This document shows positions 2,886 to 58,055 of a stretch of 64,000 nt of DNA, piece by piece. The translations under genes and the position numbers were made by a program. This stretch comes from Salinigranum halophilum (GTDB lineage Archaea > Halobacteriota > Halobacteria > Halobacteriales > Haloferacaceae): NCBI RefSeq assembly GCF_007004735.1, contig NZ_SSNL01000004.1:620001-684000 (forward strand), in the 5' to 3' direction. Position 1 is the first letter of the stretch, and each line of letters begins with the position of its first letter. The notes under the pieces are model-generated. The model was not told the DNA's origin, searched no databases, and was given only the letters and a program-made list of their open reading frames with translations.

Positions 2886-4269
2886 ATGCCGGCGAAAATC
2901 GACGTACGGATGGAAGACGTGATTCGCACCGTCAAAGTCAAACTTGATGTCCCCACAGCCCGGTGCGACGATCTCCACCAGACCAAAGATCGCTTTCTCC
3001 ACTGCGCGAACACCACCGCAAGGTGGGCGTGGAGATACCCGAACGACTACTGTGTGACCTCGAAGAAACAAGCCGAGAGCGCTCTGTACGACCAACTCCG
3101 TGAAGAGACGGATTACATGCACGCTAACCTCGTGCAAAAAGGAATTCGGCGTGCAATCGAGGCCATCAAAAGCGGGGTCGCCAGACTCAAGAAAGGCGAG
3201 AAGACGAGTCAACCCTACTTCGATGCGTGGAGCGTCGTCTACGACAAACGAAGTGCAACGTTCCACCGCGACCATGTGTCCGTTTCGACGCCGAATGGGC
3301 GTCTTGAGTGTGACTACGTGCTTCCCGCCGACCCCGAGGGAACACCCATTGGCGAGTACTTGCTGAACGAGGACTACGAGTTCCGCATGTCCACGTTACA
3401 GTACGACCGCCAAACAGCGTCGTTCTATCTCCACGCACGGATGCGTCGAACGACAGACGAAACTGAGCAGTCCACGATTGATTCTTCCAATGCCAAGCAC
3501 AGAACAGTCCTTGGGGTTGATTTGAACGTGGACGGCTCGCTCGCCGTGACCTCGACGGGTGCGTTCATCGGGAACGCCGACGAGATGAATCATCGACGTC
3601 ACCAGAAGCCTCTGGCTTCTGGTTGGCTCACGAGAGCTCCGCTCTCGTGAACGCCGAGAGTACGAGAAAACGCGCGGGTCGATGCAGCGGACGGGAACGC
3701 GGTCGGCGCACCTGTCGATTCGGTCGATGAACGACCGCGAGCACTGCTGGATGCAGGACGAACTGCACCGTGCCTCGAACCGGATTCTCGACGAAGCCCG
3801 CGACCACGAGTGTACGCACATCGCGTTCGAGAATCTGACCGATATTCGCAATCGGATGGCCGGAGCAAAGCGATTCCACGCATGGACGTTTCGACGCTTG
3901 TTCGAGTACGTCGAATACAAAGCCGAGATGTATGGTATTGAGGTCGAGCAGGTGAGCCCGGCGTACACGAGTCAGCGGTGTTCGAAGTGTGGGTCTCTCC
4001 ACGAGTCGAGTCGGCGGTCGAAGCATCGGTTCAAGTGTCAGAAGTGCGAATACGAGTTGAACGCGGACTACAACGCGAGCAAGAATATCGCTCGGAAGCT
4101 TCTGAAGAAACTCCACTCGGGGCAGACGTCTTCGAGTGGAGGCGCACCCTGTCAGTGTGCGCTAACGTCAGGGACGTTGAACCTGAATGGCGATTTCCAC
4201 GCCTCCGTCGGTTCGACGGCAGAGGGGGAGTCCACTGACAAGCCCACGAGTTCAGTCGTGGGTTACTGA
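2886..4269 (+). pseudogene. tnpB: tnpB (RNA-guided RuvC nuclease family), frameshifted by a 55-bp insertion
   Basis: The reading frame begins at ATG 2886 and runs through the RuvC-I motif GVDLN. A 55-bp insertion (3599-3653) interrupts it at the motif NHRR and a stop follows at 3648-3650. The other frame then continues to 4269 with the RuvC-II glutamate (AFENL), two CxxC zinc pairs (CSKCG, CQKC) and the RuvC-III aspartate (NADYNASKN). Removing exactly 55 bases restores a continuous frame, with CGC CGA GAG TAC across the junction, so the gene was otherwise intact. It is probably a recent knockout. The stop codon lies inside the right-end sequence of the element. Confidence 0.85.
3599..3653. 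repeat. Twin-hairpin insertion, copy 1 (55 bp) inside tnpB
   Basis: Two perfect 10-bp stems with 3-nt loops stand side by side: ACCAGAAGCC-TCT-GGCTTCTGGT, then TGGC, then TCACGAGAGC-TCC-GCTCTCGTGA. The unit sits between flanks CGACG and CCGAGAG and ends in AACG. Its removal repairs the tnpB frame. Copies 2 and 3 (45132-45185, 57397-57453) have different stem sequences but the same architecture and the same edges. Confidence 0.85.
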
Positions 4270-11768: not shown

Positions 11769-12091
11769 CTACCTCGGGGGCAAGTGGTTCGAGATGCCAC
11801 AGGCGTCTCGTCATCACGAGAGAGCGTCGCTCTCTCGAACGACCCCGAGGCCCTCGTCTCGAGTTATCTGTAGTCTTCCGAGGTACGACGGTCGATAGCG
11901 TTCACGACTCGCGCGAGACGCAGATACCCTGGCCTTCCCGACCGTTGAGCAGCCGACACCGTCGGGACAGAGCGGACTATACGAACGAATACATAATACT
12001 TTCAGAGATATTCTTCTGAATCGAGTAAAAATACCGCTTTTCTTACTAATTCGAGAAGACCTATTACCGAACCGCGCCATCTAAGACGGCG

Positions 12092-45131: not shown

Positions 45132-45185
45132 TTGACGAGACGCGGAGCGTCTCGTTCGCACACGAGAGCGAAGCTCTCGTGAACG
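45132..45185. repeat. Twin-hairpin insertion, copy 2 (54 bp) in an IS left end
   Basis: Hairpins ACGAGACGC-GGA-GCGTCTCGT and CACGAGAGC-GAA-GCTCTCGTG are separated by TCGCA. Flanks are GCGGCG and CTGTATCC. The sister element reads GCGGGCGCTGTATCC at this point (reverse strand of 47180-47200), giving an empty-site comparison for the insertion. Confidence 0.82.
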
Positions 45186-47115: not shown

Positions 47116-48566
47116 TTAGCTGAAAGAGAGGGCGCTAAGCCCCCTTCCTCAAGGAGCGACCGCAGGGAGCGAGTAGGGAAGGGATACAGCGCCCGCACGA
47201 GGAACAAACACGATAATCAGTACCCTTAACATATCTCAGACTGCACGAGTTGACACGTCGCATGAACTACAGCCCACGCTTCCGGTTGTTCCCGACGACG
47301 GAGCAACGCAGAGCGATGGACTGGCAACGAAACACCGTGCGACAACTCTACAACCACGCACTCAAGGAATTCAATCAAATACCCGAAGACGAAGGTACGC
47401 TCCGCCAGCGCGTCTGGATGGTCCGAGACACGCTTCCAGCGATGAAAGATTGGTGGCCAGACCTCACACAGGTCTACTCAACCATCCTCCAGAAAGCCGT
47501 CGAACGCATCCGAGATAACATCCAGAACCTCGGGAAACTCAAAGCCAAGGGCTACGACGTTGGGTCGTTGAACTGGAAGCCTCCACGAGATTTCAGGAGT
47601 TTCACGTATCGACAATCGGGCTTCGAACTCGACAAAAAGAGTGGCCCGAACGGTCGAGGACTCCTCATACTCAAGAAACTCAAGGGAGAAACTCGGGAGA
47701 TTCCAATCCGTCTCCATCGAGACCTTCCCGACCACGACTCCATCAAAGAAGTCACGCTCAAGAAAGACCCTACTGGTGCGTGGCACGTCTCGTTCTGCAT
47801 CGAGACTGGGACGCCGGAGAAACCTGCCGTCGAAAGCATCGACACAGATGATACTGTGGGGATTGACCTTGGTGTTCTCAACTTCATCCACGACTCAGAC
47901 GGGCGTTCCGTTGGGAGAGTTGACTTGGATGACGACCGGAAACGACTCGAACGCGAGCAACGCTCGCTCTCCCACAAAGAATACGAGTCGAACAACTGGG
48001 AAGAACAGCGACGACGAGTCGCGAAGGTTCACGCGCGAATGTCGAACAAGAAGCACGACTACAAGCACAAACTTGCGCACTTCTACACCGCGGAGTATGA
48101 CGCCGTGTTCGTTGAGAACCTCAACGTCAAGGGAATGCTCGAATCTGGGGATACTGCGCGGAACAAGGTGGATGTCGGTTGGCGAGGGTTCATCACGATT
48201 CTCGAACACCACGGTGAGAAGAACGGCTGTCACGTCGTGCAGGTTGACCCGCGTGGAACGACCAAGGAATGCGCGTCGTGTGGGGTCTCAACAGATAAGC
48301 CGTTGTGGGTTCGTGAACACTCATGCCCGACGTGTGGGTTTGAAATAGACAGGGATTGGAATGCGGCGTTGAACGTCCTCAATAAGGGACTCTCGAAACT
48401 AGGAGTGGTTCACTCCGAAGCAACGCCTGTGGAGACTGCGACCGCTGTGTCCACTGACGGGGGCGATTATTCGTCCATCGTCGTGGATGCAAGTCGCGTC
48501 ACAGAAGCAGGAAGCCCCGCCCTCAAGGAAGCCGCGTCAGCGGCTGAGTAGGGCGGGGTAGTTCAC
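47116..48566 (+). mobile_element. IS1341-type element with intact tnpB
   Basis: Left end TTAGCTGAAAG with GGCGCTAAGCCCCCTTCCTC; right end GGGCGGGGTAGTTCAC. It is sister to the element at 43665-45257 but lacks both the RHH gene and the twin-hairpin insertion. It abuts a TFB-like gene fragment, which it may have truncated. Confidence 0.78.
47262..48551 (+). CDS. tnpB: TnpB, RNA-guided nuclease family (complete RuvC triad)
   Basis: A 429-residue protein from ATG 47262. RuvC-I GIDLGVLNF, RuvC-II VFVENLNVKGM, zinc pairs CASCG and CPTCG, and RuvC-III DRDWNAALN are all present. The last 40 codons overlap a hairpin-rich region (48510-48566) expected to give the scaffold of the guide RNA, with the guide lying beyond TAGTTCAC. 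It is close to the 43681 protein. Confidence 0.92.
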   Translation: MNYSPRFRLFPTTEQRRAMDWQRNTVRQLYNHALKEFNQIPEDEGTLRQRVWMVRDTLPAMKDWWPDLTQVYSTILQKAVERIRDNIQNLGKLKAKGYDVGSLNWKPPRDFRSFTYRQSGFELDKKSGPNGRGLLILKKLKGETREIPIRLHRDLPDHDSIKEVTLKKDPTGAWHVSFCIETGTPEKPAVESIDTDDTVGIDLGVLNFIHDSDGRSVGRVDLDDDRKRLEREQRSLSHKEYESNNWEEQRRRVAKVHARMSNKKHDYKHKLAHFYTAEYDAVFVENLNVKGMLESGDTARNKVDVGWRGFITILEHHGEKNGCHVVQVDPRGTTKECASCGVSTDKPLWVREHSCPTCGFEIDRDWNAALNVLNKGLSKLGVVHSEATPVETATAVSTDGGDYSSIVVDASRVTEAGSPALKEAASAAE

Positions 48567-57396: not shown

Positions 57397-57453
57397 TCCC
57401 CAGAACGCTTCGCGTTCTGGTGTGCAAACGAGACGCGAAGCGTCTCGTTAACG
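57397..57453. repeat. Twin-hairpin insertion, copy 3 (57 bp) in an IS left-end hairpin
   Basis: Hairpins CCAGAACGC-TTC-GCGTTCTGG and AACGAGACGC-GAA-GCGTCTCGTT are separated by TGTGC. Flanks CTCCCG and CCGTAAACGGCGGGA rejoin into a perfect 7-bp hairpin (CCCGCCG-TAAA-CGGCGGG), so the insertion split an IS end hairpin. Confidence 0.85.
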
Positions 57454-57493: not shown

Positions 57494-58020
57494 GACACCA
57501 TCCCCCGCGAGCACATCAGGGCGGTAAGTGTGGGGAGTTGACAGACACACACCACACTCGCGAGTGTAACGGTCGAAAGAGGCTGAATACTCATAAACAC
57601 ACACCTCCCTCGCGAGTGTAACGGTTGAAAGAGGCTGAATACTCACAGACACACACCATCCTCGCGAGTACATAAGGGCGGTATGTGTGGGGAGTCGACA
57701 GACACACACCTCCCTCGCGAGTGTAACGGTCGAAAGAGACTCAATACGCACACACCACACTCGCGAGTGAATATTCAGGGCATGCGGAGTCGATGACTCT
57801 CGTTTGATGACGAATACTCAGTGGTCCCCCTCACCCCATCCAGTTACACCCGCGAGGGAGGTGTGTGGCCCCAGTGACGATTCGAGGGATGCGAGAGTGA
57901 ACCTCCAGTTGTCGTCAGATACACGCGCGAAGTGACCGGGGACAACTCCATCGAGAGTTCTCGCCTCTCGAGCCCTCAAATCCGTCAATCTGCCGAACCT
58001 ACACACGCGAGGGACGTCCG
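57494..58020. other. Replication origin with ORB-like repeats upstream of orc
   Basis: Direct repeats with core CTCGCGAGTGTAACGGT start near 57557, 57609, 57661 (diverged), 57714 and 57760, spaced 52, 52, 53 and 46 bp. Inverted copies lie at 57843-57868 (TTACACCCGCGAGGGAGGTG) and more weakly near 57918 and 58000. Each core holds the palindrome CTCGCGAG. Adjacent text such as ACACACACCTCC and CGAAAGAG is also conserved. Such Orc-binding clusters next to an orc gene define haloarchaeal origins. No strongly AT-rich unwinding element was found. Confidence 0.8.
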
Positions 58021-58055
58021 GAGGTTCATGTACCAACCCGAAGGGAACAGTTCCC

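What the first reader, a model, noticed from the sequence alone, without database searches (positions are those of the whole stretch)
3599..3653. A mobile-looking twin-hairpin element with reconstructable empty sites (copies at 3599, 45132, 57397)
Three units of 54-57 bp share one architecture (stem 9-10 bp with 3-nt loop, short spacer, second stem 9-10 bp with 3-nt loop) but not stem sequence. Every copy starts with T, ends with AACG and sits directly after CG and before C. Removing copy 1 repairs the tnpB frame, removing copy 3 restores a perfect IS hairpin, and the sister IS lacks copy 2. This points to a non-coding element inserting precisely, possibly with CG or ACG duplication, into IS200/IS605-type sequences. 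Structure conserved without sequence suggests recognition of folded single-stranded DNA or RNA.
Basis: partly seen in the sequence, partly recalled or inferred. Interest (0 to 1): 0.8.

Follow-up and report, generated by a model that had tools for sequence, protein, structure and literature searches.

The report
Twin-hairpin mobile DNA in salt-loving archaea
The three short twin-hairpin units are copies of a tiny, gene-less mobile DNA element found in almost all haloarchaea; it drops precisely into CG dinucleotides, much like the bacterial "REP doublets", and what moves it is unknown.

Summary
In detail: three perfect twin hairpins (54-57 bp) at 3599, 45132 and 57397, none in shuffled DNA, plus a fourth at ~11785. 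They belong to a class-wide family: a covariance model hits 348 of 391 Halobacteria genomes but only 2 of about 240 other genomes of the phylum. The unit is symmetric: CGT(C/T)-hairpin-short spacer-hairpin-(G/A)ACG. One hairpin is usually of a CAGAA type and the other of a CGAGA type, so stem sequence is not free. Precise empty sites exist for 141 of 189 elements (43 contexts, not all independent); one CG is present when empty and two when filled. Loops are GNA on one strand or the other (69% versus about 12% in other hairpins), which points to recognition as DNA. Insertions concentrate in IS200/IS605 elements and other palindromes but are not confined to them. Copy 1 breaks tnpB; splicing or translational bypass is not supported. 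Other copies sit in frame in tnpB. Architecture matches head-to-head dimers of bacterial CGTC-tagged REPs and works like REPINs, but loop size and base composition differ. It is not Haloquadratum SMR-A. Most likely: archaeal REPIN-like elements mobilised in trans; the enzyme is unproven.

The parts
3599..3653 (+). copy 1: twin-hairpin element (CAGAA + CGAGA hairpins) inside tnpB, frame-breaking (55 bp)
   Evidence: empty site CATCGACG|CCGAGAG in about 75 homologues
2909..4269 (+). IS200/IS605-type tnpB reading frame interrupted by copy 1 (approximate bounds)
   Evidence: open frame only when the 55 bp are left out
45132..45185 (+). copy 2: twin-hairpin element (two CGAGA-type hairpins) in a non-coding IS end, site GCGGCG|CTGTATCC
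   Evidence: same site filled by other twins in other genomes
47172..47200 (-). sister IS end without copy 2 (empty site GTGCGGGCG|CTGTATCCC; approximate bounds)
57397..57453 (+). copy 3: twin-hairpin element in the 5' arm of an IS hairpin (CCCG|CCGTAAACGGCGGG)
   Evidence: occupied equivalents in L237 and L292
11785..11841 (+). fourth, divergent copy (type B, TGGTTCG...CGAACG) between the arms of a CCTCGGGG/CCCCGAGG palindrome; boundaries uncertain
   Evidence: (37 bits, E 5e-7)

Best explanation
An archaeal REPIN-like miniature mobile element without any gene. Two different hairpins face each other with CGT(C/T) tags outside. SHOWN: precise presence or absence next to a CG that is found at both edges when filled and once when empty; class-wide spread in Halobacteria; mostly paired CAGAA + CGAGA hairpins; stable GNA loops on either strand; frequent insertion in IS200/IS605 sequences and palindromes, including the ends of other twins. 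INFERRED: the unit is handled as single-stranded DNA in which the two hairpins are recognised together, cut at the CG edges and joined to a CG target by a single-strand nuclease acting in trans, most plausibly an HUH/Y1 enzyme. The enzyme itself is not identified.
For: Twin hairpins are absent from shuffles. Distribution: 155/170 genomes of the family, 348/391 of the class, and outside the class only 2 weak hits among about 240 genomes. Tags: 189 of 273 twins have CGT and ACG at the two edges, against a 20% background per edge. Empty sites: 141 of 189 elements in 43 contexts, 131 of 141 keeping one CG at the joint. Heterodimers: 131 of 149, 73.5 expected. Loops GNA/TNC: 147 of 212 (70 GNA, 77 TNC), against about 12% in other 3-nt-loop hairpins. 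Same sites filled by different twins, and one site in both orientations. Empty joints are more foldable than random CG sites (p about 0.008).
Against: No transposase is linked to the elements. G021 has 41 model hits and no Y1 match, and G043 and G055 have only Y1 fragments, while G142, G073 and G062 have intact Y1 genes and no strong hits. No movement has been seen in real time. Repeated occupation of the same site inside repeated sequences could also come from recombination between repeats.
Confidence: 0.6

Rival explanations
1. No transposition: the units arose rarely and spread by recombination, gene conversion and template switching between repeated sequences (IS copies, Halorubrum repeat), which polyploid haloarchaea do readily.
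For: The same tnpB site is filled in three separate tnpB lineages, two of them in one genome with identical elements. Most Halorubrum copies sit at one site of one repeat. Resident Y1 genes do not track the elements.
Against: 43 contexts at CG, many of them unrelated intergenic sites. Flanks of the two identical tnpB copies in G077 differ within 9-13 bp of the element, so any conversion tract would be very short. One IS site carries twins in both orientations.
Confidence: 0.25
2. An RNA-level element (terminator, stabiliser or processing hairpin) selected for regulation.
For: Many copies lie between genes or at IS ends; twin hairpins could stabilise or end transcripts.
Against: GNA loops occur on either strand about equally (70 against 77); the units are missing at homologous sites in the same genome; no Rfam match; some lie inside reading frames.
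Confidence: 0.08
3. A mini-intron or translational bypass element that leaves tnpB functional (CGU take-off, CGC landing codon in copy 1).
For: Window copy 1 and L139 keep both tnpB halves open, with pairwise dN/dS 0.12 and 0.19.
Against: The three filled tnpB genes fall in different clades among empty ones, so the pairwise dN/dS mostly predates insertion. L138 tnpB has decayed. Since its split from the empty L182 the L139 lineage has 14 nonsynonymous and 13 synonymous changes, against 7 and 13. Copies that persist in tnpB are mostly multiples of three and open, which bypass would not need.
Confidence: 0.03
4. Haloquadratum SMR-A elements (Dyall-Smith 2011) under another name.
For: Same kind of host: both insert in near-terminal palindromes of IS605-type elements (PMC3119063).
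Against: The 108-117 bp repeats recovered from G099, which fit SMR-A in size, ends and target, have TAGT...ACTA-like ends, no twin 3-nt-loop hairpins and no CGT tags.
Confidence: 0.03

Closest known systems
CGTC-tagged REPs, head-to-head dimers (Di Nocera 2013, PMC3733652; include Rickettsia RPE-4/RPE-6 and Neisseria dRS3)
   Same: CGTC tag outside each hairpin, head-to-head dimers predominant, heterodimers common, no known transposase, insertion in palindromes in some species, some copies in frame inside genes.
   Different: Those are bacterial, with 4-5 nt loops, AT first pairs, CCA tails and mostly 20-100 bp spacers. Here: archaea, 3-nt loops, CGTT as frequent as CGTC, spacers mostly 4-7 nt, CG-anchored empty sites.
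REPINs with RAYT transposase (Bertels and Rainey 2011, PMC3116915)
   Same: Inverted hairpin doublet that moves as a unit, no gene, clover-like fold.
   Different: No GTAG tag and no RAYT: only IS200-type Y1 enzymes were found in Archaea (PMC6006769).
SMR-A small mobile repeats of Haloquadratum walsbyi (PMC3119063)
   Same: Gene-less haloarchaeal mobile repeats that attack palindromes of IS605-type elements and PATEs; mobilisation enigmatic.
   Different: About 110 bp, well-conserved sequence, other ends, no twin hairpins.
PATEs / terminal-only IS605 derivatives (PMC3119063)
   Same: Very short (52 bp forms), palindromic, no gene.
   Different: Their palindromes are those of IS605 ends; no resemblance of the CAGAA/CGAGA hairpins to IS ends was noticed here, but this was not tested systematically.

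Membership tests
CGTC-tagged REP superfamily | terminal CGTC tag next to the hairpin | tested here: met
   189 of 273 twins carry CGT and ACG at the two edges; 4-base tag CGTC 175, CGTT 185, CGTG 15, CGTA 3, so the exact CGTC form is met by about half
CGTC-tagged REP superfamily | predominantly head-to-head dimers (tags outside) | tested here: met
   all modelled units have this arrangement; single hairpins were not surveyed
CGTC-tagged REP superfamily | loops of 4-5 nt | tested here: not met
   3-nt loops in all window copies; the wide scan sought 3-nt loops only
CGTC-tagged REP superfamily | AT pairs at the first and second stem position and CCA tail | tested here: not met
   true for ATCAG-type hairpins only; CGAGA-type hairpins start otherwise
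REPIN/RAYT system | GTAG tag | tested here: not met
   tags are CGTC/CGTT
REPIN/RAYT system | associated tyrosine (Y1) transposase | tested here: inconclusive
   Y1 content does not track element content: G021 none, G142/G073/G062 intact without strong hits
SMR-A (Haloquadratum) | about 110 bp with conserved sequence and prominent terminal inverted repeats | tested here: not met
   54-60 bp here; SMR-like 108-117 bp repeats of G099 have unrelated sequence
SMR-A (Haloquadratum) | targets near-terminal palindromes of IS605-type elements and PATEs | tested here: met
   copies in IS palindromes: window copy 3, L138, L322, L332; but other sites too
translational bypass or intron element | host gene stays functional with the element inside | tested here: not met
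   decayed L138 tnpB, 14:13 nonsynonymous to synonymous changes on the L139 lineage; no expression data
target-site-duplicating MITE | staggered-cut target duplication | tested here: inconclusive
   one CG when empty, two when filled; a 2-bp duplication and a CG target with a CG-ending element look the same

The most novel reading that the evidence does not exclude
A class-wide archaeal mobile element of about 55 bp that moves without any dedicated transposase: its two hairpins, extruded as single-stranded DNA, are cut and copied into CG sites of palindromes by the cell's own replication or repair enzymes, so that the hairpin pair alone is the replicator.
Probability: 0.2. Interest if true: 0.85.

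Novelty: new variant of a known kind. Interest (0 to 1): 0.62.

Why it matters
No description of REPIN-like doublets in haloarchaea was found in the held literature, yet the element occurs in almost every haloarchaeal genome searched. It extends the REP idea to haloarchaea, supplies many filled/empty site pairs for a type of element (CGTC REPs) whose movement was only suspected, and gives a genetically tractable host (Haloferax) in which to find the enzyme. It also shows how IS200/IS605 tnpB genes gain in-frame inserts or are broken.

Tried and rejected
(1) Constant part of IS ends: rejected, since about 75 tnpB homologues and many IS ends lack it. (2) Intron or translational bypass: looked attractive because both tnpB halves stay open with low pairwise dN/dS; rejected after the tree and the polarised changes. 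(3) SMR-A: rejected by direct comparison with repeats from the Haloquadratum-like genome G099. (4) Known RNA family: no Rfam hit. (5) Virus-borne repeat: no match in 50,697 phage records. (6) Y1 transposase as driver: no clear association. (7) A single-copy intergenic comparison in genus g13 showed the region missing in six relatives, but the intergenic sequence is too diverged to define the joint.

Full report
Check of the observation. The three units are real. They are the only perfect twin hairpins with stems of 8 bp or more in the 64 kb; 20 dinucleotide shuffles gave none. As single-stranded DNA they fold into two hairpins with z-scores from -4.6 to -6.9. The claims on copies 1, 2 and 3 all hold: removal restores the tnpB frame, the sister IS lacks copy 2, and removal of copy 3 restores a perfect 7-bp IS hairpin. 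A fourth, divergent copy lies at 11785-11841.

Anatomy. A covariance model found about eight copies in the genome. Printed side by side, copies are symmetric: CGT(C/T), hairpin, spacer of mostly 4-7 nt, hairpin, (G/A)ACG. Of 273 distinct twins, 189 have CGT and ACG at the edges, where 20% per edge is expected; the T-to-ACG length is mostly 55 or 57 bp. Read from the tag inwards, hairpins are of two types, CAGAA and CGAGA; 131 of 149 typed pairs combine one of each, 73.5 expected at random. Loops are GNA on one strand or on the other in 147 of 212 hairpins, about equally (70 and 77), against roughly 12% in other 3-nt-loop hairpins of the same DNA. GNA triloops are known to make very stable DNA mini-hairpins (own knowledge); the lack of a strand bias suggests that the DNA, not a transcript, is what is recognised.

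Distribution. 155 of 170 genomes of the family and 348 of 391 of the class, in 80 of 86 genera, have strong hits. Outside the class only 2 of roughly 240 genomes of the phylum gave weak hits, which is also the specificity control. Counts per genome are lower bounds because few candidates were scored; with more scored, G056 has 72 and the Haloquadratum-like G099 has 22. No annotation marks the unit itself in the two plasmid records inspected, and phage records have no match. One plasmid hit, in Salinigranum marinum, has the same coordinates as a hit in G165, a genome of the window's genus, which points to Salinigranum as the source.

Filled and empty sites. Joined flanks of 141 of 189 elements match uninterrupted DNA elsewhere, in 43 contexts; in 131 of 141 one CG stands at the joint. 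The anchor on CGT makes the left CG trivial; what is informative is that only one of the two CGs of the filled site is present when empty. A 2-bp duplication and an element ending in CG inserted after a CG target cannot be told apart. Contexts are partly related to each other, so 43 is an upper bound for independent sites. Hot sites are an IS end (GCGGCG|CTGTATCC), a tnpB site (GAATCAACG|CCTGTGGAG), IS palindromes, and a large Halorubrum palindromic repeat; different twins occupy the same site, in one case in opposite orientation. Units also stack on each other, sharing ACG|T joints. Joints fold better than random CG sites (10 of 43 in the top 10%, p about 0.008), but not all do.

Effect on tnpB. 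Copy 1 is 55 bp and breaks the frame with a stop 17 codons in. The window and L139 share the site, with low pairwise dN/dS, which raised the idea of splicing or bypass. The tree of about 50 homologues put the three filled genes (window, L139, L138) in different clades among empty ones; L138 has decayed, and the L139 lineage shows a higher share of nonsynonymous change than empty L182 after their split (small numbers). The idea is therefore not supported. In other tnpB genes, units of 54, 57 or 60 bp are read through in frame, as described for Rickettsia palindromic elements (PMC3733652).

Mechanism. The best-supported reading is a gene-less, REPIN-like doublet moved in trans. Shown: precise presence and absence, CG edges, doublet as the unit, DNA-level hairpin constraint, palindrome-rich targets. 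Inferred: single-strand cutting and joining by an HUH/Y1-type enzyme. The inference is weak: genomes with many units may lack intact Y1 genes and the reverse, and only IS200-type Y1 proteins were found in Archaea (PMC6006769). Spread by recombination between repeats remains a serious rival.

Comparison with what is known. The architecture is that of head-to-head dimers of CGTC-tagged REPs, bacterial repeats for which no transposase is known (PMC3733652), but loop length and stem base composition differ, so membership is not claimed. It works like a REPIN (PMC3116915) but has neither the tag nor a linked RAYT. In haloarchaea, SMR-A repeats of Haloquadratum attack the same IS605 palindromes (PMC3119063), yet repeats of that description recovered here have other ends and length. 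A recent survey of REPs in archaea lists no Halobacteria among its archaeal genomes (PMC12306157). Literature searches of the held library found no description of this family; subscription papers and supplements could not be checked.

Noticed in passing
L061-L089 (Halorubrum-like genomes, genus g22), around 1350-1700 in each locus: A large multi-copy palindromic repeat (AAAGCCCCAGCCGCGAGG...CCTCGCGGCTGCCCCTTTGAGTCCC) whose arms change together between copies, often with a TTTATAAA box upstream; it hosts up to four kinds of twin hairpins and has no Rfam match.
   Followed up: partly
L062:1402-1450, L095:9713, L103:9922, L126:9618: Further twin-hairpin types (TTCGA-type, GCCGGCGGC-type, GAGGGACC-type) with their own fixed sites in the same repeat; only the main type was modelled.
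   Followed up: partly
L309:4014, L313:2589, L314:2525, L289:1180, L159/L173/L174:2839: Twin hairpins in frame and open inside tnpB (54, 57 or 60 bp), at two recurrent sites.
   Followed up: partly
L349:15442, L353:18267, L356:13 (G099): 108-117 bp repeats with TAGT...ACTA-like ends, several of them inside IS palindromes, probably the SMR-A elements of Haloquadratum walsbyi.
   Followed up: partly
window 57500-58050: Array of repeats around CTCGCGAGTG just upstream of a gene that looks like orc1/cdc6; possibly a replication origin next to copy 3.
   Followed up: no
L035:423-511, minus strand: Sub-threshold Rfam match (35 bits, cut-off 40) to the c-di-GMP-II-GAG riboswitch; probably chance.
   Followed up: no
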